64,000 nucleotides of DNA from Candidatus Onthomonas avicola (GTDB lineage: Bacteria > Bacillota > Clostridia > Oscillospirales > Oscillospiraceae), in the NCBI GenBank assembly GCA_018710845.1, contig DVJB01000048.1, forward strand, positions 1 to 64,000. Reading direction: 5' to 3'. Both the position numbers and the translations under genes were made by a program. This document shows, piece after piece, positions 10,965 through 61,837 of this stretch; the first letter of the stretch is position 1; each line of letters starts with the position of its first letter. The notes beneath the pieces were generated by a model. That model saw only the letters and a list, made by a program, of their open reading frames with translations. It had not been told where the DNA came from and did no database searches.

Positions 10965-11064
10965 AGGGACAGAAAGATGCATTGCAGCGCAGTGCCCAGT
11001 GAGATTCTCCCACGCCTTGGGAGCTCATTTGCAGAAAAATGACAGGCAGAAAGAGGGCAGTGAT

Positions 11065-17024: not shown

Positions 17025-18575
17025 GTGGCACAGAAAGAACAACAGCCGGCGGCAGCCGCCGTCCGGAAGAGCGGACCGGTCAGCTCCGCTCTGGACAAGG
17101 TGTTCCATTTCACCGAGCGGGGCAGCACGATGAAATCGGAGATCGGCGCGGGCCTCGGATCATTCTGCATCGCGGTGTGCGCCCTGCTGATGAACACGCA
17201 GATCATCGGCTCGGCCTACGGCAACTATGCCGGCTCCTACCTGGCCGTGGGCCTGCTGTGCTTTGCCGGCACGCTGCTGCTCGGCATCATCTGTAACCTG
17301 CCGCTGCAGCAGACGGCCAATATGGGCCTCAGCTCAGTGCTCATCTCCATGCTGGGGACGGACACCGGCCTGACCTACGCCAACCTGATGGCCGTCACCT
17401 TTGTGGCCGCCGTCGTCTATCTGGCGCTCGTCCTGAGCCCGGCCCGCCGCGTCCTGGTGGACGCGCTGCCGGACGGGGTGAAAAAGGCGCTTCCGGTGGG
17501 CATCGGCCTGTACATCATGTATACCGGCCTGAAAAATGCCGGCATTCTAAATGCCGAGGGCGCCATGACCCGCGCCTCTGACCTCACGACGCTCAACATC
17601 TACTACTTCTGGCTGATGATCGCGGCCGTTTTCCTGTTCATCCTCTTCAAAGCCCTGCGTCGGAAGAAGCCCGCTTTTGCCACCTTCGGCATCCTGATCG
17701 GCGCGATGTGGATCGGCGGCATCATCTTCTTTATGGATTACTTCATCGGCGGGCAGACTGCCTCCGTCGTGGTCTACGAGCGCCTGAACCTGGTGGTCGC
17801 CACCGATGGGGCGGACCCGTACAACATCGTCACCGGCCTGCAGTCGCTGCAGACCGGCGCCCTGTTCACGGAGGGCTTTGACTTCTCGGCCTATACCGCG
17901 GCCGGCGGCTCGGTCCCGCTGCTGTTTGTGCAGGGCATCTTCACCTTTGTCCTGATGGGCCTGTACAGCAATCTGGGCAATGCCCGCGCCACGGCGGTCG
18001 CCGGCGGCTATGAGGAAGAATCCTATGCCGCCCAGGGTGAGCGCAGGGCGCTGGTGCTCGGCGCAGCGCTCAACGTGGCAGCTCCGGTGCTCGGCGCCTC
18101 CCCCACCTCGGTGGGCAGTCAGTCCGCCGTGGGCGCCGGAGACGGGGGAAAGACCGGTCTGAGTTCGGTCGCCGCGAGCGTCGGATGGCTGATCGCACTG
18201 TTTACCTGGGTCTTCTTTATGCTCTTTGCCACCTCTACCAACGGCGTCGGCATGTGGGTCGGCGAGACGGAGACCAAGCTGGCAGCTTACGTGCAGGACG
18301 GCTTTGCCTTTGCCGACCTGATTATGGTTCTGGTAGGCGCGACCATGCTGCGCGGGGTGCGCGCCTGCGATCCCTCCCGCCGGAGTGAGTGGATCCCCTT
18401 TGCCGCCACCCTGGGAACAATCGCCTTCCTTGGCGATATCGCGCTGGGTGTCGGCGTGGGCTGCGTCGCCTGCGTGCTCTGCAAGGCGGTCAGCCAGGAG
18501 CGCCGGGAACTGAATGTCTCCTCCCTGGTGCTCAGCACCATCATGCTGGCCTACGTGATCCTCGCCCTCCTCTGA
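17025..18575 (+). CDS. AzgA/NCS2-like nucleobase permease (516 aa)
   Basis: Polytopic membrane transporter, with about 12 hydrophobic segments. FHFTERGSTMKSEIGAGLG at residues 27-45 matches the start of AzgA (guanine/hypoxanthine permease) proteins, as do the ALPDGVKKALPVGIGLYI block near residue 148 and the late GASPTSVGSQSAVGAGDGGK region corresponding to the conserved purine-binding helix turn. The GTG at 17025 follows AGGAGGAATC. It lies 95 bases behind the GH3 gene in the same direction and may share its transcript, an odd pairing. It is divergent enough from true AzgA that a different substrate is possible. Confidence 0.72.
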   Translation: MAQKEQQPAAAAVRKSGPVSSALDKVFHFTERGSTMKSEIGAGLGSFCIAVCALLMNTQIIGSAYGNYAGSYLAVGLLCFAGTLLLGIICNLPLQQTANMGLSSVLISMLGTDTGLTYANLMAVTFVAAVVYLALVLSPARRVLVDALPDGVKKALPVGIGLYIMYTGLKNAGILNAEGAMTRASDLTTLNIYYFWLMIAAVFLFILFKALRRKKPAFATFGILIGAMWIGGIIFFMDYFIGGQTASVVVYERLNLVVATDGADPYNIVTGLQSLQTGALFTEGFDFSAYTAAGGSVPLLFVQGIFTFVLMGLYSNLGNARATAVAGGYEEESYAAQGERRALVLGAALNVAAPVLGASPTSVGSQSAVGAGDGGKTGLSSVAASVGWLIALFTWVFFMLFATSTNGVGMWVGETETKLAAYVQDGFAFADLIMVLVGATMLRGVRACDPSRRSEWIPFAATLGTIAFLGDIALGVGVGCVACVLCKAVSQERRELNVSSLVLSTIMLAYVILALL

Positions 18576-18584
18576 CCCTTCGCC

Positions 18585-18610
18585 CTCCCGCCCCGGCGTC
18601 CGGGGCGGGA
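18585..18610 (+). terminator. Terminator-like hairpin and left copy of a 26-base direct repeat
   Basis: CCCGCCCCGG and CCGGGGCGGG pair around a CGT loop just after the permease stop. The same 26 bases recur with one mismatch at 18825-18850, bracketing the hairpin-rich element. Confidence 0.65.
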
Positions 18611-18824
18611 CAGACTGTCGAAAAAGGTCTCACCGAGTTTGGCTCAAAGAGCCAAATAGAGTTCAGTTTATTTTTGGCACGGGCATGTACCGGGCCAAAA
18701 ATACTGATAGTCCGACGAGTGTGCGGATTTTTGGAACAAAAATCCGTGCGCGTGGGAGGACTGCAAATTCGCGCAAATGCTTGCATTTGCGCGAGGCTGT
18801 CAAAAACACTTTTTTGACAGCCTC
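18611..18824 (+). mobile_element. MITE-like hairpin-rich element, copy 1
   Basis: A 214-base noncoding element with imperfect terminal inverted repeats: AGACTGTCGAAAAAGG at the left end against AGGCTGTCAAAAAAGT at the right end. Inside are a TTGGCTC/GAGCCAA hairpin, a conserved TTTTTGG-ACGGGC-TGTACCGG-CCAAAAA block (about 18670-18712), then hairpins at 18721-18750 and 18763-18795 and the terminal GAGGCTGTC/GACAGCCTC hairpin. It is bracketed by 26-base direct repeats. The reverse complement of 29540-29780 shares the scaffold but has different hairpin sequences at the same places. No protein is encoded. Confidence 0.65.
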
Positions 18825-18850
18825 CTCCCGCCCCGGCGTCCGGGACGGGA
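18825..18850 (+). repeat. Right copy of the 26-base direct repeat
   Basis: Repeats 18585-18610 with a single G-to-A difference, itself a stem-loop. This is either a long target duplication or a duplicated terminator created when the element inserted. Confidence 0.7.
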
Positions 18851-18862
18851 GGGGCAAAGTCA

Positions 18863-18908
18863 TCCGCAGGCAGACAGGAAGCCTGCTTGTCTGTCTGCGG
18901 ACGGTTTT
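18863..18908 (+). terminator. Strong stem-loop with short T tail
   Basis: TCCGCAGGCAGAC (18863-18875) pairs with GTCTGTCTGCGGA (18889-18901), with one mismatch, followed by CGGTTTT. It lies between the element and the kinase promoter; nothing else is seen up to 19084. Confidence 0.6.
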
Positions 18909-19084
18909 GCATTCCGTCCGGGCCGCAGCGTCGCCTCTCCTCCTTTTACGCCGCCTCCTAAGCACGCGTGTCTGTCTTGTGCGGCGCCGGCTCAACCAGT
19001 CCTTCCGCTCCGGAGCAACTTTTGCCAGGGGTCTGCTCCGGAGCGGGGGGAATTCCACAATCTGGAAAAACGGAGGTCCCTCTC

Positions 19085-19113
19085 TTGCCCGCCTCGCCGT
19101 TTGCGAGTATAAT
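19085..19113 (+). promoter_or_regulatory. Promoter of the two-component operon
   Basis: TTGCCC (19085-19090), 17-base spacer, perfect TATAAT (19108-19113). Confidence 0.65.
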
Positions 19114-19153
19114 GGAGTTGTCTCAGACCGTCAGAAGAGAGAGGACCCGGACC

Positions 19154-20509
19154 ATGCTGGACTATTTTCAGACTTATTATCTTGAGGTGGGCTATGGCCC
19201 CGGCTACATCGCGACCAACATCACCTACGTCATCGCCGTGGTCCTGCTGCTGGGCAGCATCGAGCGCAGCGCCCGGAACCTGCTGCTGCGGGCGGCCGAG
19301 AGTCTGCTCCTCTGGGCCGGTGCGGTGATCTTCTGCAGCGTCTACTACTGTTTGATTGGCCACGCAGGGATGGACCGGCTGATGATGGCGCTGATCATCG
19401 TGTGTTATGCGGTGTTTCGCAGCCGCTACTCGGTGATCACGCGCGTCGTGCGCAGCTGCACCTTCTATGCTTGTACTATCTTGGCCATTCCCATCTCCGA
19501 GCCGGTCGGAGAGGCGATTGAGGAGATCGACGCCAGCTTTACCTGGGCCGAGCACCTCACCTGGGTCATTATGGTCATCATGATGGCCCTCACCCTGATC
19601 GTGCTGCGGCGCTTTTCCACGGAGGGGCTGACGTTTGTCCCGGTTTTTCCCGCCGTGTTGGTCGCCTCCCTCTCCGGGGTCGCTGTGGCCTTGCAGTTGA
19701 TCTACGAATGGATCGGCAGCGATAAGCTCTACAATATTATTGTGGCCGGGTGCTTCTGGCTGGTGGAGCTCTTCCACGTCTACCTCTTCCACCTTGTCTG
19801 CCGGGAATACGACCAAAACCTTGAGCTGCTCGCCCTCCAGCAAAAGGAGGAACTTAACCGGGAGCTGATGGAATTCTCCCAGGAGAACTACCTGGAGATG
19901 CACATGATCCGCCACGAGATCAAAAATCATCTCTCCTATCTCAAGACAATGGCGGAGACCGGAGATCTGGAGCACCTGCGAAGCTATCTCGGCACGGTGC
20001 TGGGAGAGACGGAGAAGCTCTTTCAGTTCGTCGAGTGCGGGAATGACACGATCAACGGCGTGATGAACCACGCCGTGCGCCAGGCCCGTGCGCGCGACGT
20101 AGCGGTGGAACACACACTGATCGTGCCGCCCAGCCTGCCGTACCGGGAGACGGACCTGTGCAGCCTGCTGTCCAACCTGATGGACAACGCCATTGAGGGG
20201 GCAGCCCAGTCCGGCAGTCACAACCCGGTGGTCACAGTCCGCATCCGGCCGCAGCGGGGCTATCTCTTTTTCCGGGTGACCAACCCGGTGGACTCGCAAA
20301 TCCCCGCTTCCCGACGGCTGAGCCTGCGCACGACGAAGAAGGACGACCGGCTGCACGGCTTTGGAACCCGCATGATCCGCCGCATTGCCGAGCGGTATCA
20401 GGGAAGCGTGAAATATGCCATTCGGGACGGTCAGTTTATTGCCGACGTGATGCTCTATTTGCCGGGAGGCGAAGAACATGGGTCAGAAAATCTACCTGGC
20501 GATCTGTGA
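19154..20509 (+). CDS. GHKL-type sensor histidine kinase, AgrC-like (451 aa)
   Basis: Membrane sensor kinase of the AgrC/ComD class. Residues about 15-225 form roughly six membrane helices for signal sensing. A coiled linker (QNLELLALQQKEELNRELME) leads to the H-box MIRHEIKNHLSYL with phospho-acceptor His254. The ATPase domain has an N-box (LLSNLMDNAIEGA) and G-box (HGFGTRMIRRIAERYQG). The start at 19154 follows AGAGAGG. The response regulator gene begins inside its last 32 bases, so expression is coupled. AgrC relatives often sense secreted peptides, but no peptide gene is visible nearby, so the signal is unknown. Confidence 0.88.
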   Translation: MLDYFQTYYLEVGYGPGYIATNITYVIAVVLLLGSIERSARNLLLRAAESLLLWAGAVIFCSVYYCLIGHAGMDRLMMALIIVCYAVFRSRYSVITRVVRSCTFYACTILAIPISEPVGEAIEEIDASFTWAEHLTWVIMVIMMALTLIVLRRFSTEGLTFVPVFPAVLVASLSGVAVALQLIYEWIGSDKLYNIIVAGCFWLVELFHVYLFHLVCREYDQNLELLALQQKEELNRELMEFSQENYLEMHMIRHEIKNHLSYLKTMAETGDLEHLRSYLGTVLGETEKLFQFVECGNDTINGVMNHAVRQARARDVAVEHTLIVPPSLPYRETDLCSLLSNLMDNAIEGAAQSGSHNPVVTVRIRPQRGYLFFRVTNPVDSQIPASRRLSLRTTKKDDRLHGFGTRMIRRIAERYQGSVKYAIRDGQFIADVMLYLPGGEEHGSENLPGDL

Positions 20510-21203
20510 TGACGAGACGGCCGTGCTGGATATCGTCTCCGGTGCGGTGACCAGCGCCTTCCGCAAGCGCGGCGTGCAAGCCGTGGTGGAAACCTTTCGC
20601 CAGAGCCGGGAGTTGGAGGCGCGGATGGAGACGCAGGCCTTTGACCTCCTGCTGCTTGATATCGACATGCCGGGGATGGACGGGATCGCATTTGCCAGGC
20701 GGCTCCGGGCCTCCGGCAGCCGGGTGGATATCATCTTCGTCTCCAACCGGGAGGACCGCGTCTTTGACGCCCTGCGGACCAATCCGGGCGGATTTATTCG
20801 CAAGAGCCGCTTCCTGGAGGACGTCCCCGCCATGATCGACACCTATATGAAGGGCCGAAGCCGCCGGGAACGCCGGCCAAAGCTGACCGTTCAGAATCGG
20901 GACGGCATGCGCGCGATCCCCCTGGACCAGATTGTCTACGTGGAGGGCGGCGGCAAAGTGCAACAGCTGCACCTGGCCGCGCAGGCAGAGCCGCTGCCGG
21001 TGAGAAGGCCGATGCAGGAACTGGAGACAGAACTCGGCCCGTCCGGTTTTCTGCGAATCCACAAGGGCTATCTGGCCAATTACCGCTTTATCCACTGTCT
21101 GGAAGAGGACTGCGCGCTGCTGACCAATGGGGAGCGGATTCCTATGAGCCGCCGCCGGGTCAAGGAGATCCGTGAGCGCTATCTGGAGCTGATGCAGGAC
21201 TGA
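20478..21203 (+). CDS. LytTR-family response regulator (241 aa)
   Basis: Receiver plus LytTR DNA-binding domain, partner of the overlapping kinase. The receiver has the acidic pair Asp11-Asp12, phospho-acceptor Asp61 in LLLLDIDMPGMDG and the FVSN switch strand near residue 95. The LytTR domain starts near residue 140 (LTVQNRDGMRAIPLDQIVYV) and ends with RIHKGYLANYRFI and MSRRRVKEIRERY, the usual DNA-contact region. It overlaps the kinase gene by 32 bases and is followed by a terminator. LytTR proteins bind direct repeats of promoters; targets cannot be named here. Confidence 0.9.
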   Translation: MGQKIYLAICDDETAVLDIVSGAVTSAFRKRGVQAVVETFRQSRELEARMETQAFDLLLLDIDMPGMDGIAFARRLRASGSRVDIIFVSNREDRVFDALRTNPGGFIRKSRFLEDVPAMIDTYMKGRSRRERRPKLTVQNRDGMRAIPLDQIVYVEGGGKVQQLHLAAQAEPLPVRRPMQELETELGPSGFLRIHKGYLANYRFIHCLEEDCALLTNGERIPMSRRRVKEIRERYLELMQD

Positions 21204-21219
21204 CGGCAAGAGGTACTGC

Positions 21220-21253
21220 TCCCTCCGCGGCCCAACGGCTGCGGAGGGATTTT
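21220..21253 (+). terminator. Terminator of the two-component operon
   Basis: TCCCTCCGC (21220-21228) pairs with GCGGAGGGA (21241-21249), followed by TTTT. Confidence 0.8.
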
Positions 21254-21266
21254 GTATCGAAAGCGC

Positions 21267-21322
21267 TTGACAGGAAGCGTTGCTCCTGTTATACTATAAC
21301 AGTGTTATATAACATCGTTATA
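21267..21322 (+). promoter_or_regulatory. Promoter with two overlapping palindromic operators
   Basis: TTGACA (21267-21272), 17-base spacer, TATACT (21290-21295). Two palindromes TATAAC-N3-GTTATA lie at 21295-21309 and 21308-21322, sharing two bases and covering the start point. This is the expected layout for an autoregulated TetR repressor binding as two dimers. A weak cre-like GAAAGCGCTTGA overlaps the -35. Confidence 0.8.
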
Positions 21323-21336
21323 TCCGAGGTATATTC

Positions 21337-21948
21337 ATGTCCCCTGAATCGACGTTGGAGCGTATCCATCAGGCGGCCCGGAAGGAATTCCGGGCGCGAG
21401 GCTTTCGCGCCGCCTCCCTGCGCAGCATTGTGAAATCCGTCGGGATGACCACCGGCGCGTTTTATGGCTATTACAGGAGCAAAGAGGACCTCTTTGCGGC
21501 GCTTGTGGGAGCACACTACGACTATCTTATCGGGCGGTTTCGCCAGGCACAGGAGGAATTCGCCCGCCTGCCCCGGGAACGGCAGCCCGAGGTGTTGGGG
21601 GATATCTCCGGCCTGTGTATGTTCGACATGCTCCACTACGCCTATGACCATCTGGAGGACTGTCAGTTGCTGCTGTGCAGCGCGGAGGGGACCCGCTTTG
21701 CCGGACTGATTGACGAGATGGTGGAGATCGAGGTGAACGCCACCCACGCCTATCAGGCGGTACTGAATGAGCTGGGACGGCCCTCCCCGGAGATCGACCT
21801 GCGCCTGGAGCACATTTTGATCACCGGAATGTTCCACACATTTTTTGAGCTGATTATCCATGAGATGCCCCTGCCGGAGGCTGAACGCTACCTGCGGGAG
21901 ATGCGTGCCTTTTATACGGCGGGCTGGATGAAAATTATGGGGCAGTAA
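21337..21948 (+). CDS. TetR-family transcriptional regulator (203 aa)
   Basis: Homodimeric repressor with an N-terminal helix-turn-helix: RIHQAARKEFRARGFRAASL and SIVKSVGMTTGAFYGYYRSK in residues 5-50, typical of TetR proteins. The C-terminal ligand domain is not specific to a known subgroup. The start at 21337 follows CCGAGG and lies directly behind the twin palindromes, so it probably represses itself and the two ABC genes that follow. Ligand unknown; TetR regulators next to exporter pairs usually respond to the exported compound. Confidence 0.88.
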   Translation: MSPESTLERIHQAARKEFRARGFRAASLRSIVKSVGMTTGAFYGYYRSKEDLFAALVGAHYDYLIGRFRQAQEEFARLPRERQPEVLGDISGLCMFDMLHYAYDHLEDCQLLLCSAEGTRFAGLIDEMVEIEVNATHAYQAVLNELGRPSPEIDLRLEHILITGMFHTFFELIIHEMPLPEAERYLREMRAFYTAGWMKIMGQ

Positions 21949-21968
21949 GGCCCTATAATTTTTCCCCA

Positions 21969-21990
21969 TTTGTTAGTTATCGCTAACAAA
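21969..21990 (+). promoter_or_regulatory. Perfect inverted repeat between TetR and ABC genes
   Basis: TTTGTTAG (21969-21976) and CTAACAAA (21983-21990) are separated by TTATCG. It resembles an operator (or a small mRNA hairpin) before the first ABC gene; it differs from the TATAAC palindromes. Confidence 0.45.
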
Positions 21991-22059
21991 GAAGCTGATA
22001 TCAGGAGGTTTTTCCATCTCCTATATCATAAAACTGTACCATCAAAGGAGGAGTCCCCG

Positions 22060-23829
22060 TTGAAGAGGCAATCCAATCTGCAGCGCCTGCTGGGATATGC
22101 GGGCGCCCACAAATATCTGACCTACGCTTCCTGGATTCTATCCGCCGTCAGCGCGCTGATCGCGCTGGTGCCCTACTGGTACATCTGGCGGATCATCCGG
22201 GAGGTGCTGGCAGTCGCTCCGGATTTCGGGCAGGCGCAGGGCCTGGTCCACAACGGCTGGATGGCGGTACTGTTTGCGGTGGCGGCCGTACTGGTCTATA
22301 TCGCCGGGCTGATGTGCTCCCACATGGGGGCTTTCCGCATCGCCACCAACCTGCGCCTGGCCATGCTGGAACACATCATCAGGCTTCCGCTGGGAGCCGC
22401 GGAGGCCTTCGGCAGTGGCAAACTGCGCAAGATCGTCAACGAGTCCAGCGCCGCCACCGAGACCTACCTGGCCCATCAGCTGCCCGACCGGGCGGGCGCC
22501 ATCGCCACGCCCTGCGGTCTGCTGGCGCTGCTGCTCGTATTTGACTGGCGGCTGGGACTGTTGAGCCTGGTCCCCGTCCTTTTGGGATTTCTGATTATGA
22601 TGGCGATGACCGGGCCGCGAATGCAGCAGAAGATGAAGGAATACCAAGACGCGCTGGACGATATGTCCAACGAAGCGGTGGAATACGTCCGGGGCATTCC
22701 GGTGGTCAAGACCTTCGGCCAGACCATCTTCTCCTTCAAGAAATTCAAAGGCTCTATCGACCGCTATCAGAAGTGGGTGATCGCCTATACGAAGGAGCTG
22801 CGCACGCCTATGATGTGTTACACGGCGGCAGTCAACGGGGTGTTCGTCTTCCTGATTGCCGGGGCGCTGCTGTTCACACGCGATGGCGTGACGGCGCAGT
22901 TTCTGCTGAACCTGATGTTCTACATCATCATCACCCCTATCATCTCGGTGACGCTGACCCGGATCATGTTCCAGAGTGAGAACGCCATGATCGTAGATGA
23001 CGCGCTCCAGCGGATCGACAGCATTCTGAACCTCCGGCCGTTGCCGGAGGCGCAGCGTCCCCAGCACCCCAGGGACGCCTCGGTGGAGCTCTCGCACGTC
23101 CGGTTCAGCTATGACGGGCAGAAGGATGCGCTCCGGGACATCTCCCTGGCCATTCCCGCCGGGCAGACGGTGGCCTTCGTCGGGCCGTCCGGCGGCGGCA
23201 AGACCACCCTGGCCAACGTGATCTCCCGCTTTTTTGACCCGCAGGGCGGTGCGGTCCGCATCGGCGGCGTGGATGTGCGCGACATCTCCAAAGAGGAACT
23301 GATGAATACGGTCTCTTTCGTGTTCCAAAACAGTCGGCTCCTCAAGGACTCTATCCTAGAAAATGTGCGTCTGGGCAGGCCGGAGGCTACGCGTGAGGAG
23401 GTGCTGGCCGCCCTGGAAAACGCCCAATGCGCCGATATCCTGGAAAAGCTCCCCAACGGCGTGGATACTGTCATCGGCACAAAAGGAGTCTACCTCTCTG
23501 GCGGGGAGCAGCAGCGCATCGCCATCGCCCGGGTGATGCTGAAAAATGCCCCTATCCTCATCTTGGACGAGGCGACTGCCTTCGCCGACCCCGATAACGA
23601 GACAAAGGTGCAGTCAGCCTTCTCCCGCCTGTCTCAGGGTAAGACGGTGATCATGATCGCCCACCGGCTCTCCACCGTCGCCAATGTGGACCGTATCTAT
23701 GTGATTCAGAACGGCGCCATCGCCGAGAGCGACTCCAGCCGGGAGCTGATGGAGCGCGACGGCCTGTTCCGGCGGATGTGGGAGAACTATCAGACCTCGG
23801 TTCAGTGGAAGGTCGCAAAGGAGGCGTGA
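22060..23829 (+). CDS. ABC exporter half-transporter, permease plus ATPase (589 aa)
   Basis: First half of a heterodimeric type IV ABC exporter. Six membrane helices occupy residues about 20-315; the coupling region includes VEYVRGIPVVKTFGQ. The ATPase domain has Walker A GPSGGGKTTL near residue 380, signature LSGGEQQRIAIAR near residue 480 and Walker B ILILDEATAFADPDNE. The start is TTG at 22060 directly after AAAGGAGGAG; the frame continues upstream through the operator-like repeat, which argues against an earlier start. Its partner begins four bases after its stop. Substrate could be a drug, peptide or siderophore; sequence does not decide. Confidence 0.87.
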   Translation: MKRQSNLQRLLGYAGAHKYLTYASWILSAVSALIALVPYWYIWRIIREVLAVAPDFGQAQGLVHNGWMAVLFAVAAVLVYIAGLMCSHMGAFRIATNLRLAMLEHIIRLPLGAAEAFGSGKLRKIVNESSAATETYLAHQLPDRAGAIATPCGLLALLLVFDWRLGLLSLVPVLLGFLIMMAMTGPRMQQKMKEYQDALDDMSNEAVEYVRGIPVVKTFGQTIFSFKKFKGSIDRYQKWVIAYTKELRTPMMCYTAAVNGVFVFLIAGALLFTRDGVTAQFLLNLMFYIIITPIISVTLTRIMFQSENAMIVDDALQRIDSILNLRPLPEAQRPQHPRDASVELSHVRFSYDGQKDALRDISLAIPAGQTVAFVGPSGGGKTTLANVISRFFDPQGGAVRIGGVDVRDISKEELMNTVSFVFQNSRLLKDSILENVRLGRPEATREEVLAALENAQCADILEKLPNGVDTVIGTKGVYLSGGEQQRIAIARVMLKNAPILILDEATAFADPDNETKVQSAFSRLSQGKTVIMIAHRLSTVANVDRIYVIQNGAIAESDSSRELMERDGLFRRMWENYQTSVQWKVAKEA

Positions 23830-23833
23830 AGCC

Positions 23834-25567
23834 ATGATCCAAAAGCTGCAAAAAAAGTATGCCCTCTCCGAACAGGGGGCAAAGGACCTGGTCAAGGGCT
23901 GTATCGCCTGCGTGTTTCAGAACATCACCTTTATGCTTCCGGTAGGGCTGCTCTATGCTCTGGTGGGCGACCTGCTGGACGGAGGCGTACCCGCCGGTAA
24001 GGCCGCATTCTGCGCGGTGGGCTGCGCGGCGTGCGTGGGACTGATCCTGCTGTCCACCTACCTCCAGTACAACGCCACCTACTTTGCCACCTATGTGGAG
24101 AGCGGCGTGCGCCGGATCTCCCTGGCCGAGCAGCTGCGAAAGATTCCGCTGTCCTTCTTCGGCAAGAAGGACTTAGCCGACCTGACCAGCACCATTATGG
24201 CGGACTGCACCTTTTTGGAGCAGAGCTTCTCTCATTTTATCCCAGAGTTAGCCGGCTCTATCATTTCCACCGTGCTGATCTCCGTCAGTCTGCTGCTGTT
24301 TGACTGGCGGATGGCGCTGGCAGCCCTGTGGGTCCTTCCGGTCTCCTTCGCCATTGTGGGCGGCTCGGCCGGGGTGCAGGAGCGGCTGAATCAAAAGGCA
24401 ATGGACGCGAAAATGGCCTGCGCGGACGGCATTCAGGAGTGCATTGAAACCGTTCGGGACCTGAAGGCCAACAACGCGGAGGATGCCTATCTGCGCGGGC
24501 TGGAACGGAAGATCCGCGCGGTGGAGCACCGCTCCATCATCAACGAGTTTGGCCTCGCGGCCTTTGTGGTCAGTGCTTCGCTGATATTGAAGCTGGGCAT
24601 CGCCACGGTGGCGCTAGTGGGGTCCGTCCTGCTCGTGCGCGGGGAGCTGGACATCCTGACCTTCTTTCTGTTCCTACTGCTGGTCTCCCGCCTGTACGAC
24701 CCGCTGCAGAGTGCGCTGCAAAACCTGGCGGCAGTCATCAGTACCCGCACAAATATCGCCCGGATGAACGAGATTCTGGACCAGCCCATCCAACAGGGTG
24801 AGAGCCAGCTCACCAACCAGGGGTATGATATCCGTTTTGACCATGTGGGCTTTGCCTACAATACCGGCGAAACAGTCTTGCAGGACGTCTCCTTTACCGC
24901 CAGGCAGGGAGAGGTGACCGCGCTGGTAGGTCCCTCCGGCGGCGGAAAGACTACGGTGTCCCGGCTGGCCGCCCGGTTCTGGGACCTGGACAAGGGAAAA
25001 ATTACCGTGGGCGGGATGGATATCTCCAAGATTGACCCGGAGGCGCTCCTCTCCCTCTATTCTATCGTATTTCAGGATGTCACCCTGTTTGACAACACCA
25101 TTCTGGAAAACATCCGCATCGGCAACAAGGATGCCACCGACGCGGAGGTGCTGGCCGCGGCCAGACTCGCCAATGTGGACGAATTTGCGGAAAAGCTGCC
25201 GGACAAATGGAACAGCAATATCGGAGAAAACGGCTGTGAGCTCTCCGGCGGGGAGCGCCAGCGGATCTCCATTGCCCGCGCCTTCCTGAAAAACGCCCCC
25301 ATCATTTTGCTTGACGAGGCGACTGCCTCTCTCGACGTGGAGAATGAGACGTTAATCCAGACCGCCCTCTCCCGCCTGATCCGGGACAAGACAGTGCTCG
25401 TCATCGCCCATCGGATGCGCACGGTGGCCGGGGCGGACAAGATCGTGGTGCTTGACGGCGGCGCAGTCGCGGAAGAGGGCGCTCCCGGCGAGCTGCTGCG
25501 GCAGGGCGGTACTTACGCGCGCATGGTCAAGCTCCAGACAGAGAGCCAGAACTGGACACTGGCATAA
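23834..25567 (+). CDS. ABC exporter half-transporter, partner subunit (577 aa)
   Basis: Second half of the heterodimeric exporter, with six N-terminal helices and the ECIETVRDLKANNAED coupling block near residue 205. The ATPase domain has Walker A GPSGGGKTTVSR near residue 370, signature LSGGERQRISIAR near residue 475 and a fully canonical Walker B IILLDEATASLDVENE. The ATG follows AAAGGAGGCG. The pair follows a TetR regulator as in many multidrug or iron-siderophore exporters of Clostridia. It is read with the preceding gene as one complex in the cytoplasmic membrane. Confidence 0.88.
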   Translation: MIQKLQKKYALSEQGAKDLVKGCIACVFQNITFMLPVGLLYALVGDLLDGGVPAGKAAFCAVGCAACVGLILLSTYLQYNATYFATYVESGVRRISLAEQLRKIPLSFFGKKDLADLTSTIMADCTFLEQSFSHFIPELAGSIISTVLISVSLLLFDWRMALAALWVLPVSFAIVGGSAGVQERLNQKAMDAKMACADGIQECIETVRDLKANNAEDAYLRGLERKIRAVEHRSIINEFGLAAFVVSASLILKLGIATVALVGSVLLVRGELDILTFFLFLLLVSRLYDPLQSALQNLAAVISTRTNIARMNEILDQPIQQGESQLTNQGYDIRFDHVGFAYNTGETVLQDVSFTARQGEVTALVGPSGGGKTTVSRLAARFWDLDKGKITVGGMDISKIDPEALLSLYSIVFQDVTLFDNTILENIRIGNKDATDAEVLAAARLANVDEFAEKLPDKWNSNIGENGCELSGGERQRISIARAFLKNAPIILLDEATASLDVENETLIQTALSRLIRDKTVLVIAHRMRTVAGADKIVVLDGGAVAEEGAPGELLRQGGTYARMVKLQTESQNWTLA

Positions 25568-25574
25568 CACACAA

Positions 25575-25606
25575 GCGCCGCCCCGGCCCAAGCCGGAGAC
25601 GGCGCC
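25575..25606 (+). terminator. Stem-loop after the ABC exporter operon
   Basis: GCGCCG (25575-25580) pairs with CGGCGC (25600-25605), with an inner CCGG/CCGG stem. There is no T run, so termination is uncertain. AGCGTGTCGACAA just after it (25608-25620) matches the end of the element at 29540. Confidence 0.4.
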
Positions 25607-25707
25607 AAGCGTGTCGACAACGGTTGACAATGCTGAGCGGCCGGAGCAATCGCTCCGACCGCTCATTCTGTGCCGCATGCCCACAAATCAGGCTTTCTCC
25701 CCGCCGC

Positions 25708-26301
25708 TCAATCTTTCACCCCAGGTGCCGGCAACGGCAAAATCTCCGCCCCGAGCAGCGCGGCCTCGTCGGCGCGGTGGGTGGTAAAGATCAGCAGACG
25801 GCCCGCGCGGCGGCGGCTTACCCACTCCGCCGTGCGCGCGCGGCTGTCCCCGTCCAGGCCGGTGAACGGCTCGTCAAGCAACAGCACGTCGGACGGGGCC
25901 AGCACTGCCCGGGCGATCGCCACGCGGCGCTTCATCCCGCCGGAGAGCTCCCGCACCGGCTGGCGCAGGCAGGCGGGAGGCAGGATCTCTCCCAGCGCCG
26001 CCGCCAGCGCCGCGCGGTCCGCCCGACCGGGCTGGACCATCGCCGCGTTGGTCACCGGCGAGAGGTGCATGCACAGCCGGTCCTCCTGGAAGACCATCGC
26101 GCAGCGCGCCCGGTCAAAGCCCACGAGCTGCCCCGCGTCCGGGCGCTCCAGCCCGGCCAGCAGGCGGAAGAGAGTGGTCTTCCCAGCGCCCGAGGGGGCC
26201 ATCAGGCAGTAGCAGCCGCCCGGCGCGAAGGAGAGCGTCAGGTCGCGCAGAACGGTGTTCGCCCCGTAGCGGCGCGTCACATGCTCACATCCGTAGATCA
26301 T
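25708..26301 (-). CDS. ABC transporter ATP-binding protein, SsuB/TauB-like (197 aa)
   Basis: ATPase of a nitrate/sulfonate/thiamine-precursor-type importer. Walker A APSGAGKTTLFRLLAG is near residue 35, Q-loop VFQEDRLCMHLSP near residue 70, signature LSGGMKRRVAIARA near residue 115 and Walker B VLLLDEPFTGLD near residue 140. At 197 residues it is shorter than the usual 240-260, lacking a C-terminal extension. ATG at 26301 is chosen because the ABC fold starts there (MIYGCEHVTRRYG); the coding start lies within the permease gene end, a 17-base overlap. It is last in a binding protein-permease-ATPase operon. Confidence 0.87.
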   Translation of the reverse strand: MIYGCEHVTRRYGANTVLRDLTLSFAPGGCYCLMAPSGAGKTTLFRLLAGLERPDAGQLVGFDRARCAMVFQEDRLCMHLSPVTNAAMVQPGRADRAALAAALGEILPPACLRQPVRELSGGMKRRVAIARAVLAPSDVLLLDEPFTGLDGDSRARTAEWVSRRRAGRLLIFTTHRADEAALLGAEILPLPAPGVKD

Positions 26302-27055
26302 CCGTCCCCTCCAGCGCGCGGCCCACCCGGCCGAGCAGTGCCAAAAAGAGCCGCTCAAAGGCCAGGCTGAGCAGAATGATGACAAAGGTCCAGGCAAAGA
26401 GCTGGTCAATTTCCAGGTAGATCTTGGCAAAGTAGAGCTCCTGGCCGATGGAGTGCAGCGGCGTGCCGATCACCTCCGCCGCCACGCCAGACTTCCAGCT
26501 CAGGCCAAGGGCGAGCTGGCAGCCGCTCGTGAGAGAGGGCATCAGGGCGGGCAGGTAGAGATAGCGCGCCCGCCGCCAGCCGTTCATCCGGAACACCCTG
26601 GCCATCTCCAGCAGGGCGCCGTCCACCCGCCCGAGGCCCTCGCGTGTCTGGACGTAGAGGATAGGAAAGACGATGACAAACACGATGACGAAGGTCAGTT
26701 GGTCCGACCCCACCCAGACCAGGGCGAGGATGACAAAGCAGACCACCGGCACCGACTTCATCGCCGTCACCGCCGGGGCGAGCAGGTCAGCTAGCAGCGG
26801 ACAGCGCACGCTCGCCGCTCCGAGACCGGCCCCGGCAGCAAAGGCGAGTAGGAAGCCGCCCGCAATCCGCAGCCCAGTGAAGAGCACCGTCTGCCAGAAT
26901 GCCGCCGTCCGTCCCATCGTGCCCAGCGCGGCCAGGGCCTCCAGCGGCCCGGCGAGGACGACCGGCTCATCCACCCACCAGCTCGCCGCCTGCCAGAGGA
27001 CCAGCCAGCCGAGGACGATGAGCAGCCGCTTCCAGCGCGAGAGCAGCTCAGCCAA
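26285..27055 (-). CDS. ABC transporter permease, SsuC/TauC-like (256 aa)
   Basis: Membrane subunit with about six helices and the family loop WRRARYLYLPALMPSLTSG near residue 170, the EAA-type ATPase contact, followed by GLSWKSGVAAEVIG. No ATG lies near the family start; a TTG at 27055, overlapping the stop of the binding-protein gene by eight bases, gives a normal length and fits translational coupling. A long in-frame extension upstream is a shadow of the binding-protein gene. The substrate is set by the upstream lipoprotein and remains unknown. Confidence 0.85.
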   Translation of the reverse strand: MAELLSRWKRLLIVLGWLVLWQAASWWVDEPVVLAGPLEALAALGTMGRTAAFWQTVLFTGLRIAGGFLLAFAAGAGLGAASVRCPLLADLLAPAVTAMKSVPVVCFVILALVWVGSDQLTFVIVFVIVFPILYVQTREGLGRVDGALLEMARVFRMNGWRRARYLYLPALMPSLTSGCQLALGLSWKSGVAAEVIGTPLHSIGQELYFAKIYLEIDQLFAWTFVIILLSLAFERLFLALLGRVGRALEGTDDLRM

Positions 27056-28160
27056 GATAGTAGAAGTCGTCGCCCGGCAGTGTGCCGCCCACGGATGCCG
27101 GATCGAGGTCATAGAGCACCTGCAGATAGGCAGAGACCATCGCGCGCATCTCCTCTCCGTCGATGTAGGTGACGTTGCAGGAGGGGATGGCCTGTTCCGC
27201 GACAGCGGCGCTGGCCATGATGCCGTAGTCCTCCACGAGCTGGGCCACAGTGGCCACGTCCTCCGAGACGTAGGAGGTGCTCGCCTCGTGCTCGGCGAGG
27301 AAGGTGGCGACCGCCTCCGGGTGCTCCTCAAGGAAGGCGGTGCGCACGACGGTCACGCCGGTGAGCAGGTCGGTGTCACAGACCGCGCCCCACTCCGCCG
27401 TCAGGTCAAGCACGACGGAAAAGCCCTCCAGCTGGCCCAGCGCGGCGGTGACCGACGGCTGCGGCAGCAGGCCGACGCCCTCCGGGTCGGCGGTCAGCGC
27501 GGCGATCACCTCGGTGGCCTCCGACTGGTACTCCACCGTCACGTCCTCCAGGCTCATGTCGTGCCGGCTGAGCAGGTATTGCAGGACGTAGTCCGGGCTG
27601 GTGCCCTGACCGGGCAGATAGATCGTCTTGCCCGCCAGATCTTCGATCGAGGCGATGGAGTCGTCTGCTGAGATGACGTAGAGCACACCAAGGGTGTTCA
27701 CATCCAAGCAGGTCACGCCGCCCTCCAGGCGGTTATACCAGATGGACGCGGCGTTGGCAGGGATGAGGGCGATGTCCAGCTCCTCGTTCACCACTGCCGT
27801 CAGCAGGGCGGAGGCGTCCGCCTCCAGCGTGAAGGCATAGCTCCCCTCGCTCCGGCCCGCCTCACTGTCCGAGCGGAGCTTGGCCAGGCCGATGGAAGTC
27901 GGACCCATCAGCGAGCCGATGCGGACGGTCACTTCGTCCGTCCCGGCAGACGAGGTATCCGCCTCCTCCGGCTCCGTCTCCTCGGGGGACGCCTCTTCTT
28001 CCGTGGCGGCGTCTCCCTCGTCTGTCTCCGTCCCGGCGTCTGTGGCGGTGTCCTCCGTAGCGGTGTCGCCGCTGTCGACGGACTCCTCCGCCGGCGCGCC
28101 GCAGGCCGCGAGCGCCAGCGTCATGGCCAGCGCCAGCAGCAGAGCAAGCAGTTTCTTCAT
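27048..28160 (-). CDS. NMT1/SsuA-like substrate-binding lipoprotein (370 aa)
   Basis: Extracytoplasmic binding protein. The signal peptide ends in LAAC with Cys20 as lipid anchor, then a long acidic Glu/Thr/Asp linker runs to about residue 75. The binding domain shows VRIGSLMGPTSIGLAKL, ELDIALIPANAASIWYN, the IEDLAGKTIYLPGQGTSPDY block typical of NMT1/THI5-like proteins, and a normal C-terminus. Family ligands include alkanesulfonates, nitrate, and pyrimidine precursors of thiamine. The start follows GAGGAGG. An unusual leader with an intrinsic terminator precedes it (28161-28343), which suggests metabolite-dependent control. Confidence 0.87.
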   Translation of the reverse strand: MKKLLALLLALAMTLALAACGAPAEESVDSGDTATEDTATDAGTETDEGDAATEEEASPEETEPEEADTSSAGTDEVTVRIGSLMGPTSIGLAKLRSDSEAGRSEGSYAFTLEADASALLTAVVNEELDIALIPANAASIWYNRLEGGVTCLDVNTLGVLYVISADDSIASIEDLAGKTIYLPGQGTSPDYVLQYLLSRHDMSLEDVTVEYQSEATEVIAALTADPEGVGLLPQPSVTAALGQLEGFSVVLDLTAEWGAVCDTDLLTGVTVVRTAFLEEHPEAVATFLAEHEASTSYVSEDVATVAQLVEDYGIMASAAVAEQAIPSCNVTYIDGEEMRAMVSAYLQVLYDLDPASVGGTLPGDDFYYLG

Positions 28161-28343
28161 GTCATTTTCCTCCTCTGAAATGGTCTCCTCTCAGGCGTCC
28201 GTTCCGGCCGGAGGGCCGCACGAGCCGCATAGGCGCATAGAAAAACCCTCCTGCCGCGAGCAAGAGGGCACTTCCGTAACGTGCAGAAGGCTCCGTCTTC
28301 CCCCGCAGAGATTTCTTTGGCGTCAGAACAGAACTGAGATTTC
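28161..28343 (-). promoter_or_regulatory. Long leader with intrinsic terminator; candidate riboswitch or attenuator
   Basis: The predicted transcript begins near 28343. On the minus strand it contains GGCG...CGCC (an outer stem), a CTTC...GAAG hairpin, then CCCTC-TTGC/GCA-GAGGG (28268-28246) followed by five T (28245-28241), which is a terminator about 80 bases before the start codon. I looked for TPP, FMN, SAM, cobalamin, glycine, guanidine-I and T-box signatures by eye and found none. The class is unassigned. Confidence 0.5.
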
Positions 28344-28349
28344 GCCCCT

Positions 28350-28378
28350 ATCCTATCACATCGCACGGCCGGTTGCAA
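28350..28378 (-). promoter_or_regulatory. Promoter of the SsuABC-like operon
   Basis: TTGCAA (28378-28373), 17-base spacer, TAGGAT (28355-28350) on the minus strand. Confidence 0.65.
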
Positions 28379-28423
28379 CCCTTTGTTTGACAAGGTAAAC
28401 TTTCAGTTGTAACTGAGTTTTAT

Positions 28424-28452
28424 TTGACACCGGTGCCGGGAGATGATACCAT
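28424..28452 (+). promoter_or_regulatory. Promoter of asnA
   Basis: TTGACA (28424-28429), 17-base spacer, TACCAT (28447-28452). A second TTGACA at 28387-28392 and a small palindrome TCAGTTGTAACTGA lie upstream. Confidence 0.55.
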
Positions 28453-28504
28453 AGAATCAACCGCCGCGCCGCGGCGCGAATTGATTGGAAACGGAGTCCT
28501 GTCT

Positions 28505-29515
28505 ATGCCCAGCTATATCCCGCAAGGTTACGCCCCCCTTCTCGGGCTTTACGATACGCAGAAAGCCATCGGCCTGATCAAGCGCCTGTTTGAGGACCAC
28601 CTGTGCGGCGCGCTGTCGCTTCACCGCGTCACCGCTCCGCTGTTTGTAGAGGCCTCCACCGGCCTGAACGACGACCTCAACGGCGTCGAGCGTCCAGTCA
28701 GCTTCGACATCCCCGCCGCCGGAGCTGAGGCGCAGGTGGTCCACTCGCTGGCCAAGTGGAAGCGCATGGCCCTCTACCGCTACGGCTTCCACGCCGGGAC
28801 CGGCCTGCTCACCGATATGAACGCGATCCGCCGGGACGAGGAGCTGGACAATCTGCACTCCGTCTACGTCGACCAGTGGGATTGGGAAAAGGTAATCGCG
28901 CCGCGCGACCGCACGGAGGAATACCTGCGCGCCACGGTGCGCGCCATTGTCGGCGCCATCTGTGCCACTCAGACCGGCCTGCGCAACGTCTATGGCCGCA
29001 CCTGCTCCCTGCCGCAGCTGGAGGAGGAGGTCACCTTTGTCACCAGCCAGGAGCTGGAGGACCGTTACCCTGACCTCACCCCGCGCGAGCGGGAAAACGC
29101 CTTCGTCCGCGAGCACCACACCACCTTCGTCCAGAACATCGGCGGCGCGCTGCGCTCTGGCCAGGTGCATGACGGACGCGCCCCCGACTACGACGACTGG
29201 AACCTCAACGGCGATATCCTCTTCTGGAACGACGTGCTCGGCCAGGCGTTTGAGGTCTCCTCCATGGGCATCCGCGTCAGCCCCGAGGTGCTCGACCGGC
29301 AGCTCACCCTCGCCGGCTGTGACGACCGCCGTCAGCTCCCCTTCCACCGCATGCTGCTGGAGGGACACCTTCCGCAGACGATCGGCGGCGGCATCGGCCA
29401 ATCCCGCCTGTGCATGCTGCTGCTCGGCAAGGCACACATCGGCGAGGTGCAGTCCTCCGTCTGGGACCGCGGCACCGTGCGCGTCTGCCGTGAGGCGGCC
29501 GTGCCGCTGCTGTGA
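28505..29515 (+). CDS. asnA: Aspartate-ammonia ligase (336 aa)
   Basis: Cytoplasmic enzyme making L-asparagine from L-aspartate, ammonia and ATP. Class II aminoacyl-tRNA-synthetase-like fold with AsnA blocks: RVTAPLFVEASTGLNDDLNG near residue 40, VVHSLAKWKRMALYRY near residue 80, VYVDQWDWEKVI near residue 115, and the C-terminal LPQTIGGGIGQSRLCMLLL. Length matches the family. ATG at 28505 follows GGAG at eight bases; the longer frame would start within the promoter. It is monocistronic, and the hairpin-rich element begins 25 bases after its stop. Confidence 0.95.
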   Translation: MPSYIPQGYAPLLGLYDTQKAIGLIKRLFEDHLCGALSLHRVTAPLFVEASTGLNDDLNGVERPVSFDIPAAGAEAQVVHSLAKWKRMALYRYGFHAGTGLLTDMNAIRRDEELDNLHSVYVDQWDWEKVIAPRDRTEEYLRATVRAIVGAICATQTGLRNVYGRTCSLPQLEEEVTFVTSQELEDRYPDLTPRERENAFVREHHTTFVQNIGGALRSGQVHDGRAPDYDDWNLNGDILFWNDVLGQAFEVSSMGIRVSPEVLDRQLTLAGCDDRRQLPFHRMLLEGHLPQTIGGGIGQSRLCMLLLGKAHIGEVQSSVWDRGTVRVCREAAVPLL

Positions 29516-29539
29516 GGAGCACATACAGATGAGAAAACT

Positions 29540-29780
29540 AGCGTGTCGACAAAGTCGACACGCTCGAACAAAATCTACGATTTTGTTCGAAAAGTGCGGC
29601 CGACCCGCGCGCCCCTTCGGGGCGCACTCCCGGCCTCCCTGTGTTTTTGGGCCGGTACACGCCCGTCCCAAAAACGATATTTCACTCTATTTTGTTGCTG
29701 TCGCAACAAAACTCCTGCGGAGAGCTTTCTGAACTTTTTACCCGTGTTTGAAATTGGTAAGGATACTTTTTCGACAGACT
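29540..29780 (-). mobile_element. MITE-like hairpin-rich element, copy 2
   Basis: A 241-base noncoding element, opposite in orientation to 18611-18824. Read on the minus strand it begins AGTCTGTCGAAAAAG and ends in an inverted relative of that end (AGCGTGTCGACAAAG on the plus strand). It shares the AATAGAGT block and the TTTTTGG-ACGGGC-TGTACCGG-CCAAAAA scaffold with copy 1. Hairpins at 29540-29563, 29564-29592 and 29607-29625 occupy the equivalent places but have different sequences. GAAAACT flanks both sides (29533-29539 and 29781-29787). Confidence 0.65.
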
Positions 29781-29781
29781 G

Positions 29782-29820
29782 AAAACTGCCCGGTTCTACC
29801 GAAAGGAACCGGGCAGTTTT
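29782..29820. terminator. Bidirectional intrinsic terminator
   Basis: AAAACTGCCCGGTTC (29782-29796) pairs perfectly with GAACCGGGCAGTTTT (29806-29820). It follows the NiaR-like gene on the minus strand and faces asnA on the other side. Confidence 0.9.
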
Positions 29821-30358: not shown

Positions 30359-30431
30359 GCGCTGCACCTCCCTGTTCTCACTTCTGCATCAGCTTACTCG
30401 AACCGGACGGAAATGTCAAGCGGGGAACCTA

Positions 30432-60704: not shown

Positions 60705-61672
60705 AATCACCGTTTGGAGCCGTATTACTGCCATGAAAACGGATGGCCCGGGATAGACCCGGTAGTCCTGATCAAGATGGTGCTGATTCAGCACTTGTTT
60801 GGAATTGCGTCACTGCGGCAAACACACCGGGAAATCCAAGTAAACCTGGCATACCGGTGGTTTTTAGGGTATGGGCTGCTGGAAAAGATTCCACATTTTG
60901 CGACGGTGAGCTATGCGTTTTGCCGGCGGTTTCCGGAAGAATTGACGGAGGAAATCTTTGAGCATATTCTGAACAAGGCGCTGAACAACCGGATGGTAGA
61001 GCCCAGTGCAGTCTTTATAGACGGTACCCATATCAAGGCCAGCGCGAACAAGAAGAAATTCCAGAAAGAACAGGTGGCCAGGGCAGCAAAGGCGTATACC
61101 CGGCAGCTGCGGGAGGAAGTAAACGCAGAGCGGGAAAAGCTGGGAAAAAAGCCGATAGAAGATGACGATGATGAGGACGGCACACCGGGTGGAGGGACAG
61201 TAGAGAAGACGGTTTCCACCACGGACCGGGATGCCGGAATGTTTGTAAAAGGGGAGCATGAGCGGCAGTTTGCCTATGAGGCCCACACAGCATGTGACAA
61301 ACATGGATTTGTTCTGGGCGTGGAGGTAACAGCGGGAGATGTGCATGACAGCGCAGCCTGGGATGGTCTGTATGACCAAGTAAGCAAACGGTTTGAAGAA
61401 ACGAAGTTTGTCATCATGGATGCGGCGTATAAGACACCGTGGATTGCGAAAAAGGTATTGGAAGGCGGGAAGATTCCCGTTTTGCCCTATACGAGATACA
61501 CCGGGAAGAAGGAATGGTACAAGCCGTGGGAGTATGCCTACGACCCTGTACAGGACACCTTGCCATGAATCTGAAAAAGCTGGCCCTCTGGAACTGGAGG
61601 GCTGCCACCCTCCCATTTTTCCTCCGTATCATTTTCCCTTTTTATGCCAGAACCCCCGTTTTCGCTTCCTGA
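60705..61672 (+). pseudogene. Truncated and internally deleted IS1182-type transposase
   Basis: An IS5/IS1182 transposase core is readable: IDPVVLIKMVLIQHLFGI, YRWFLGYGLLEKIPHF, FIDGTHIKASANKKKF (catalytic Asp), HTACDKHGFVLGVEVTAGDV, and FVIMDAAYKTPWIAKKV (second Asp). It lacks the first about 50 residues: the frame is stopped at 60702. It then stops at 61566-61568, and the typical C-terminal tail (MNLKKLALWNWRA, 61565 onward) continues in another frame, so a stretch of the middle is deleted. Mobile element relic adjoining the kinase stop; element ends not recognised. Confidence 0.82.
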
Positions 61673-61735: not shown

Positions 61736-61837
61736 ATCCTGTTTGTCAGCCGTTAAGGTTTCTCCTACTTCCTTATCAGTGTTCCCCGAGGCGGGTTCCC
61801 TTTTTTGACAATTTCGTTCCGCCAATCCGGCAAGTCG

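What the first reader, a model, noticed from the sequence alone, without database searches (positions are those of the whole stretch)
18611..29780. Hairpin-rich element in two copies with a conserved scaffold but different hairpin sequences
The segment 18611-18824 and the reverse complement of 29540-29780 share ends (AG-CTGTCGAAAAAG), an AATAGAGT block and a TTTTTGG-ACGGGC-TGTACCGG-CCAAAAA core. Between them the hairpins lie in the same order but have wholly different stems, for example TTGGCTC/GAGCCAA in one against TTTTGTTGC/GCAACAAAA in the other. Stem change with base pairing kept suggests that structure is selected, either as RNA or as DNA cruciforms. The imperfect terminal inverted repeats suggest a miniature mobile element. 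The family is not known to me.
Basis: seen in the sequence. Interest (0 to 1): 0.75.

Follow-up and report, generated by a model that had tools for sequence, protein, structure and literature searches.

The report
Jumping DNA carrying a folded RNA
The two copies belong to a large, apparently undescribed family of short mobile DNA elements, tens of copies per genome, that here land on the hairpins where genes stop being transcribed and carry a folded RNA whose shape is kept while its sequence changes.

Summary
Confirmed and much larger than reported. Window copies 18611-18823 (+) and 29541-29781 (-) are two subfamilies of one family; the window's genome holds up to 80 matches. A 160-position covariance model matches 48 of 394 genomes of the order, own genome included, in five families, with 51-76 matches in each of four genomes of one genus. 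No Rfam family matches. Covariation is strong: 60 diverse copies, 36 of 39 pairs with double changes, score 0.634 against 0.179 (sd 0.008) in shuffles. A conserved U.G pair and better folding of the + strand (55 of 61 copies) point to RNA. In the window's genome the ends match those of IS1182-family transposons, and 28 of 42 complete copies sit between two copies of a 20-39 bp sequence, mostly a strong hairpin: IS1182-type insertion at terminators. The RNA is absent from 30 IS1182 loci, and copies without the IS1182 end fold about as well. In another family of the order, copies at orthologous sites have had their sequence replaced.

The parts
18584..18610 (+). left copy of the target hairpin (27 bp)
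   Evidence: 26 of 27 letters identical to 18824-18850
18611..18823 (+). whole element, copy 1, subfamily A
   Evidence: limits from the ends and flanking duplication
18611..18625 (+). left terminal repeat CAGACTGTCGAAAAA
   Evidence: like the ends of IS1182-family transposons L148-L150; CAGANTGTCNAAAAAG with up to 2 mismatches has 74 + 55 hits in the genome against 5 + 9 for the control
18627..18794 (+). structured RNA domain, copy 1
   Evidence: model R1, 160.8 bits, positions 1-160; A copies of this genome are in the seed of R1
18638..18656 (+). helix P1
   Evidence: sequence; helix 1
18671..18701 (+). helix P2, core hairpin with loop GCRTGTA
18709..18762 (+). outer helix P3 (18709-18713 with 18758-18762) enclosing P4 (18719-18751, with U.G pairs)
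   Evidence: P3 is the weakest helix
18770..18793 (+). helix P5
18795..18822 (+). 3' hairpin made of the right terminal repeat (CTTTTTTGACAG at 18809-18820)
18824..18850 (+). right copy of the target hairpin
29534..29539 (-). short repeat AGTTTT beyond the 3' end of copy 2
   Evidence: could be chance
29541..29781 (-). whole element, copy 2, subfamily B
29564..29723 (-). structured RNA domain, copy 2
   Evidence: model R1, 134.6 bits, positions 1-160
29644..29674 (-). core hairpin, copy 2
29767..29781 (-). left terminal repeat CAGTCTGTCGAAAAA
29782..29820 (-). terminator-like hairpin with T-tract of the neighbouring gene (29836-30367, -), directly before copy 2; AGTTTT 29782-29787 is repeated beyond the element
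   Evidence: sequence; gene call
60708..61559 (+). decayed IS1182-family transposase (PF05598 + PF01609); a possible end CTTTTTTGACAA lies at 61800-61811

Best explanation
A non-autonomous (MITE-like) mobile element that carries a structured RNA. In the window's genome and several relatives of its family, an IS1182-family transposase acts in trans on the shared ends CAGNCTGTCRAAAA; it recognises transcription-terminator hairpins, joins the element at their feet, and repair duplicates the whole hairpin on both sides (shown: ends, duplications, hairpins; inferred: the transposase step). The interior is not made of terminal repeats. It is a conserved RNA of five helices with fixed unpaired letters (CCUCGCAGAG, AAAUAAA, the loop CRUGU, GUGC...GUGCGC), kept by selection on the transcribed + strand (shown: covariation, strand bias, conserved U.G wobble; inferred: transcription). 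Copies exchange hairpins with one another, which changes stems in blocks (seen at orthologous sites in one genus). The RNA most likely works by binding a protein through the CRUGU loop and the wobble helix (inference only); whether this serves the element's own spread or the host is not settled.
For: Ends: L148, L149 and L150 carry an open IS1182 transposase frame between ends with at most 1 mismatch to CAGNCTGTCNAAAAA; L149 is itself flanked by a 35-bp hairpin on both sides. Duplication: 28 of 42 copies with both ends (19 of 26 A, 9 of 16 B), 20-39 bp, median 30; 24 of 28 fold at or below the 1% level of random window stretches; random pairs of flanks score at most 11 in 99%, maximum 32 in a sample that listed B copies twice. 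One A copy sits in the 3' hairpin of a B copy and duplicates it (L130/L031). Gene-3' targeting: of 128 copies, 105 had both neighbours called: 33 convergent, 9 divergent. Structure: 93.5% of cells paired, covariation 0.319 against shuffled 0.123 (27 copies); 92.9% and 0.634 against 0.179 (60 copies, an alignment fitted to the model). RNA: U.G at one P4 pair in 52 of 60; + strand folds better (z) in 25 of 29 and 30 of 32. Breadth. IS1272, of the IS1182 family, is known to target terminator hairpins (PMC4923244, passages), and duplication of the stem-loop is one branch of a published model (PMC5678879, passage of the legend of Fig 13).
Against: Only one IS1182-family match, a remnant, was found in the window's genome with the one family model tried. 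No clean empty site was obtained. 14 of 42 complete copies lack the long duplication, and of four IS1182 elements seen with both ends only L149 shows it. In family f7 none of 19 testable copies has the IS1182 left end and the printed duplication scores there are near chance, 6-9 with one 15 far from the element, so IS1182 cannot be the whole story. There is no transcription evidence; orientation to neighbouring genes shows no sense preference (22 ++ against 41 --), which speaks against a simple 3'-UTR role. P3 pairs in only 75.6% and 70.1% of cells. Pairwise comparison of orthologs gives more broken than compensated pairs (233 broken, 124 double), because blocks are replaced. Related copies are not independent, so the sign tests overstate the number of events.
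Confidence: 0.68

Rival explanations
1. Host RNA at fixed sites: the RNA is useful to the host near the 3' ends of particular genes; occupancy is kept by selection and the sequence drifts by gene conversion among copies.
For: In genus g112, 18 comparisons of orthologous sites that carry an element in both genomes have flanks about 90-96% identical but element identity 0.63-0.93; in 12 of 18 the ortholog is less alike than the best paralog found in both genomes, in 14 of 18 in at least one. Copies without the IS1182 left end fold about as well as those with it (G198: -0.480 against -0.484 kcal/mol/nt; order set -0.456 against -0.487).
Against: Loci were fetched because they carry an element, so loss was not measured. 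No sense-orientation preference. Patchy presence: 48 of 394 genomes in the order, 2 of 398 in the phylum sample, both in the own family; both searches used strict filters and scored 7 candidates per genome.
Confidence: 0.25
2. DNA hairpins without RNA function: palindromes perfected by template switching (quasipalindrome correction) and spread by transposition.
For: Stems are long and near-perfect; whole hairpins swap as blocks; target, ends and interior are all hairpins.
Against: The U.G pair is conserved in 52 of 60; unpaired letters are conserved; the + strand folds better. An A.G mismatch in the core stem stays in 25 of 27 copies of alignment A1, where correction would remove it, but in only 13 of 60 of the wider set, where a standard pair mostly stands there. 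P3, whose arms are parted by a variable insert, has double changes at 5 of 5 pairs but is the least well paired helix (70.1%).
Confidence: 0.12
3. The folded strand, as RNA or single-stranded DNA, is part of the transposition machinery, for example a transposase-binding or target-choosing RNA.
For: It travels inside the element and keeps one architecture over five families.
Against: R1 has no match in 30 loci around IS1182 transposases or their fragments, and the RNA persists without the IS1182 end in f7.
Confidence: 0.15
4. Ordinary MITE whose hairpins are only terminal repeats and captured target hairpins.
For: The 3' hairpin contains the right terminal repeat; target hairpins are duplicated; an A copy sits in a B hairpin (L130).
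Against: The 160-position interior keeps one architecture over five families of the order.
Confidence: 0.08

Closest known systems
IS1272 / IS1182-family insertion sequences (PMC4923244: passages; PMC5678879: abstract, section list and passages)
   Same: Target terminator hairpins with little sequence preference; IS1182-family ends matching the element's ends were found here.
   Different: IS1272 is autonomous and is reported to delete or replace the hairpin, without duplication. Here 28 of 42 complete copies lie in a long duplication and the element encodes no transposase.
MITEs of bacteria (Correia elements, RUP, ERIC; recalled)
   Same: Short, non-autonomous, terminal inverted repeats, high copy number, ends shared with an autonomous IS.
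   Different: A conserved interior RNA with covarying helices and optional modules, kept over an order; present also without those ends.
BOX elements of Streptococcus pneumoniae (recalled)
   Same: Modular, high-copy, stem-loop forming intergenic repeats.
   Different: No sequence kinship tested; the present element has defined ends, hairpin duplications and a fixed five-helix scaffold.
Rfam families (TwoAYGGAY recalled as a lead for the proteobacterial hairpin loops)
   Same: Multi-hairpin structured RNA.
   Different: In the window the only gathering match is a tRNA; in five loci, four weak matches at E up to 1, none on an element.
REP/BIME elements moved by RAYT Y1 transposases (recalled)
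   Same: Dispersed palindromic intergenic repeats.
   Different: DDE-type ends and target duplication here; Y1 transposases were not searched for.

Membership tests
MITE of an IS1182-family transposon | terminal inverted repeats shared with an autonomous element of that family | tested here: met
   of 30 IS1182 loci, L148, L149 and L150 (open transposase) and L156 (broken transposase) have CAGNCTGTCNAAAAA at both ends with at most 1 mismatch, like the element's ends; the other loci were mostly fragments or lacked a second end. The carriers are other genomes of the same bacterial family
MITE of an IS1182-family transposon | no transposase gene inside | tested here: met
   element length 203-329 bp among copies with both ends
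MITE of an IS1182-family transposon | same target and target duplication as the autonomous element | tested here: inconclusive
   long duplication in 28 of 42 copies, but in only 1 (L149) of 4 IS1182 elements with both ends; by eye the other three abut a hairpin on one or both sides without duplication
MITE of an IS1182-family transposon | movement in trans by the transposase | not testable with these tools
   needs a transposition assay
MITE of an IS1182-family transposon | holds for the whole RNA family | tested here: not met
   0 of 19 testable f7 copies (of 20 loci) have the left end
known Rfam RNA family | score above the family's gathering threshold | tested here: not met
structured RNA under selection | covarying pairs beyond shuffles and slid controls | tested here: met
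   no tree-aware test was run
IS1272-type stem-loop replacement | target hairpin removed on insertion | tested here: not met
   long duplication on both sides in 28 of 42; the other 14 could include replacements, which was not examined
RNA-guided element RNAs (TnpB/IscB omega RNA, IS110 bridge RNA) | adjacent or cognate effector gene | not tested
   not searched

The most novel reading that the evidence does not exclude
An order-wide class of structured RNA, tens of copies per genome, that is held at fixed gene-end sites while its hairpins are continually replaced by exchange among copies. The RNA is the constant and the mobility apparatus (IS1182 ends in one family, none recognised in another) is interchangeable: a self-diversifying RNA repeat system with an unknown protein partner.
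Probability: 0.25. Interest if true: 0.92.

Novelty: new variant of a known kind. Interest (0 to 1): 0.74.

Why it matters
It would add a large, strongly supported structured-RNA family (hundreds of matches in the genomes searched here) that did not match Rfam 15, and it gives many natural examples of stem-loop duplication by what looks like IS1182-type insertion, a branch that was drawn as a model for IS1272. Orthologous sites with turned-over elements make it possible to ask directly whether a dispersed RNA repeat is kept for the host or for itself.

Tried and rejected
Rfam at gathering score and at E up to 1: nothing on the elements. Viral-contig scan with the core: 74 contigs, none with 3 or more flanking pairs, judged chance. 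Exact 21-letter core in genome contigs: 31 stretches; a good part are lone matches in what looks like coding DNA (for example L060, L064, L085), judged by eye. Exact 15-letter core in 400 genomes of the family: 5 genomes, of which G109 and G302 look like coding DNA; none of the 9 other genomes of the own genus, although R1 later matched two of these (G051, G139). Proteobacterial multi-hairpin repeats with the same core loop (G003-G005): R1 gives 10 matches at E 4e-6 to 2e-3 and one at 3.4 in 10 loci, none in L108 and L111, several from the core alone; homology left open. Seven transposase loci of G003-G005 (L120-L126) show no matching pair of ends. A first regex counted B copies twice (85 'copies'); corrected (42 with both ends). 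A first gene-orientation count by longest ORF was replaced by a codon-usage call. A first ortholog/paralog count picked wrong elements in multi-copy loci and was replaced, whose flank percentages are my averages of the BLAST pieces. Empty-site search: one candidate (L055/L059) did not align cleanly across the site. Pair counts on pairwise alignments of orthologs (124 double, 71 single kept, 233 broken, 1165 unchanged) were not used as a covariation test, because blocks are replaced and misaligned; they do not support compensation at single sites. Promoter scan of 18400-19000: one match, 18674-18702, 9 of 12, shuffles 0.0 (sd 0.2); it lies across the core hairpin and was not followed. Paper searches listed nothing that describes this family; PMC8040213 (3161 candidate structured RNAs) was looked at only for six terms, and its tables were not read, so it may contain this motif. 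Rows dropped: from 33 matches, L295 (own genome) and 3 weak matches on the other strand were left out; L181 (lacks P3/P4) was left out of alignment A1 (27 of 28 references).
Full report
The observation. Both segments are in the window as described. The core occurs twice, with 0 of 100 shuffles giving any, and both segments fold much better than shuffles. Exact limits are 18611-18823 (+) and 29541-29781 (-). The model built later matches both end to end (160.8 and 134.6 bits).

How many there are. The core with up to 3 mismatches has 46 forward and 15 reverse hits in the window's genome against 3 and 8 for the reversed control. Two subfamilies dominate: A (GGC..GCC core) and B (GGG..CCC core). 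Both can carry the same two optional modules: an insert in the core loop beginning ACCCCCCAGGGGGCC, and a hairpin insert near P3 (CCGAGCCGCCAACGGCGGCGACAAAGTGCCCTCGGGG). A relative (CASDSM records, 'uncultured Eubacteriales') has A, B and a third core class, CGG..CCG.

The RNA. I aligned 27 copies from five genomes. Of 39 pairs, 20 have double changes; covariation is 0.319 against 0.123 (sd 0.009) in shuffles and at most 0.105 in slid controls. Model R1 (160 positions) was built from this. It gives 80 matches in the window's genome, 77 in G198, 48 in G002, 37 in G001 and 14 in G250 at E up to 0.1, with 150 candidates scored per genome. In 394 genomes of the order 48 match at E up to 1e-3, own genome included, in families f1, f3, f7, f13 and f19; only 7 candidates were scored per genome there, so copy numbers are lower bounds. 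Four genomes of one genus have 51, 72, 74 and 76 at E up to 1e-4. In 398 genomes of the phylum 2 match at 1e-5, both in the own family. On 60 diverse copies 36 of 39 pairs have double changes and covariation is 0.634 against 0.179; that alignment is fitted to the model, which leans towards it, and P3 is its weakest helix (70.1% of cells paired). The consensus is CCUCGCAGAG-UUU-P1-AAAUAAA..AAU-P2 (loop R-CRUGU-R)-ACUUCUC-P3[AAGUGUGC-P4-GUGCGC]P3'-GCA-P5.

RNA or DNA. Palindromes in DNA should fold alike on both strands. Here the + strand folds better relative to its own shuffles in 25 of 29 copies from many genomes and 30 of 32 from G198. One P4 pair is U.G in 52 of 60, and the P1 foot is G.U in 38 of 58 with letters. 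An A.G mismatch in the core stem is kept in 25 of 27 copies of the first alignment but in only 13 of 60 of the wider one, so it is a feature of part of the family. Together these favour RNA. Related copies are not independent, and no expression data were available.

Mobility. Three IS1182-family elements with an open transposase in genomes of the same bacterial family have ends like the element's (L148, L149, L150; a fourth, L156, has a broken transposase), out of 30 loci that were mostly fragments. L149 has a 35-bp hairpin on both sides, the two copies differing only at the apex; by eye the other three abut hairpins without duplication. In the window's genome 28 of 42 complete copies lie between two copies of a 20-39 bp sequence, and in 24 of these 28 it is a stronger hairpin than 99% of random stretches. 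Some of the rest have short repeats of 6-10 bp exactly at the ends (for example L025, L034, L056, L132 and window copy 2), a length that random flank pairs also reach. One A element sits inside the 3' hairpin of a B element and has duplicated it (L130/L031). Of 128 copies, 105 had both neighbouring genes called: 33 convergent, 9 divergent, 22 in sense and 41 antisense to tandem genes; few divergent and many convergent pairs are expected for terminators. The window itself holds a decayed IS1182 transposase (60708-61559), the only match of that family model in this genome. IS1272, of the same family, is known to choose terminator hairpins but to remove them (PMC4923244, passages; PMC5678879, abstract and passages); a duplication branch is drawn in the model legend of the latter, and the pattern here fits that branch.

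The RNA is not simply part of the transposon. R1 finds nothing at E up to 1 in 30 IS1182 loci. Copies without the left end fold as well in G198 (21 without, 11 with) and slightly less well in the order set (19 without, 9 with, 1 not testable). In family f7 the IS1182 end is absent in 19 of 19 testable copies and no long duplication next to the element was seen; instead different hairpin modules follow P5.

Turnover at fixed sites. In four genomes of genus g112, 18 pairwise comparisons of sites that carry an element in both (several share a locus) have flanks about 90-96% identical. Element identity is 0.63-0.93; in 12 of 18 it is below that to the best paralog found in each genome, and in 4 of 18 the ortholog is at least as close as any paralog found; not all paralogs were in hand. 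Intergenic stretches at the seven sites printed are mosaics of hairpin modules in changing combinations. The simplest reading is vertical inheritance with exchange among copies, which changes stems in blocks. Because loci were chosen by carrying an element, the rate of loss is unknown.

Proteobacteria. The same 7-letter core loop occurs in other multi-copy hairpin elements (30 hits in G005, 9 in G004, 1 in G003 with up to 2 mismatches), with different ends (CAGGCTGTTGAAAAA in G005, by eye often beside TTAG or CTAG-like tetramers). R1 aligns P1 and P2 in order in the best of them, but the score is mostly core. Kinship is possible and not shown.

What it does. The evidence supports a mobile element of IS1182 type with a conserved RNA inside. 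The function of the RNA is inferred only: a fixed loop and a wobble helix suggest a protein partner. Lack of sense orientation argues against a plain 3'-UTR role. Selfish and host-serving readings both remain open; the next steps separate them.

Noticed in passing
L031/L130 (G000:C55, about 10690-11230): Nested insertion: a B element in a terminator, then an A element inside the B element's 3' hairpin, each with a hairpin duplication.
   Followed up: yes
L040, L041, L048, L049, L051-L057, L128-L132, L134, L137-L139: Optional insert in the core loop (ACCCCCCAGGGGGCC...GCCCCTGCGGGGC...ATTCACCTTG) shared by subfamilies A and B although their stems differ.
   Followed up: partly
L204-L219 (G005), L093-L117 (G004), L062: Hairpin elements in Proteobacteria, high-copy in G005, with the loop GCRTGTA, a hairpin capped GCAA or GTAA before it, and hairpins with GGA in the loop (CsrA/Rsm-like, recalled).
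   Followed up: partly
L345-L364, L411-L450 (family f7): Intergenic mosaics of several further hairpin modules (for example TTCGCGGCAAATTGGTAAG...GCCGCGAA, TTCACTTGAAATTGCGC...GTGAA) around the RNA, differing between species at the same site.
   Followed up: partly
L149 flanks: The two 35-bp hairpins beside this IS1182 transposon differ only at the apex (AAGATT against AATCTT), as if one were inverted.
   Followed up: no
L024/L070 and L029/L081: G000 and G001 carry an A element at the same gene end, each between hairpins that match within but not between genomes: independent insertion or conversion.
   Followed up: partly
L044: A sigma-70-like promoter (TTGACA...TATAAT) directly follows the 3' end of this element, whose own end also holds TTGACA.
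   Followed up: no
window 37524-37608 (-): tRNA, the only Rfam gathering match in the window.
   Followed up: no
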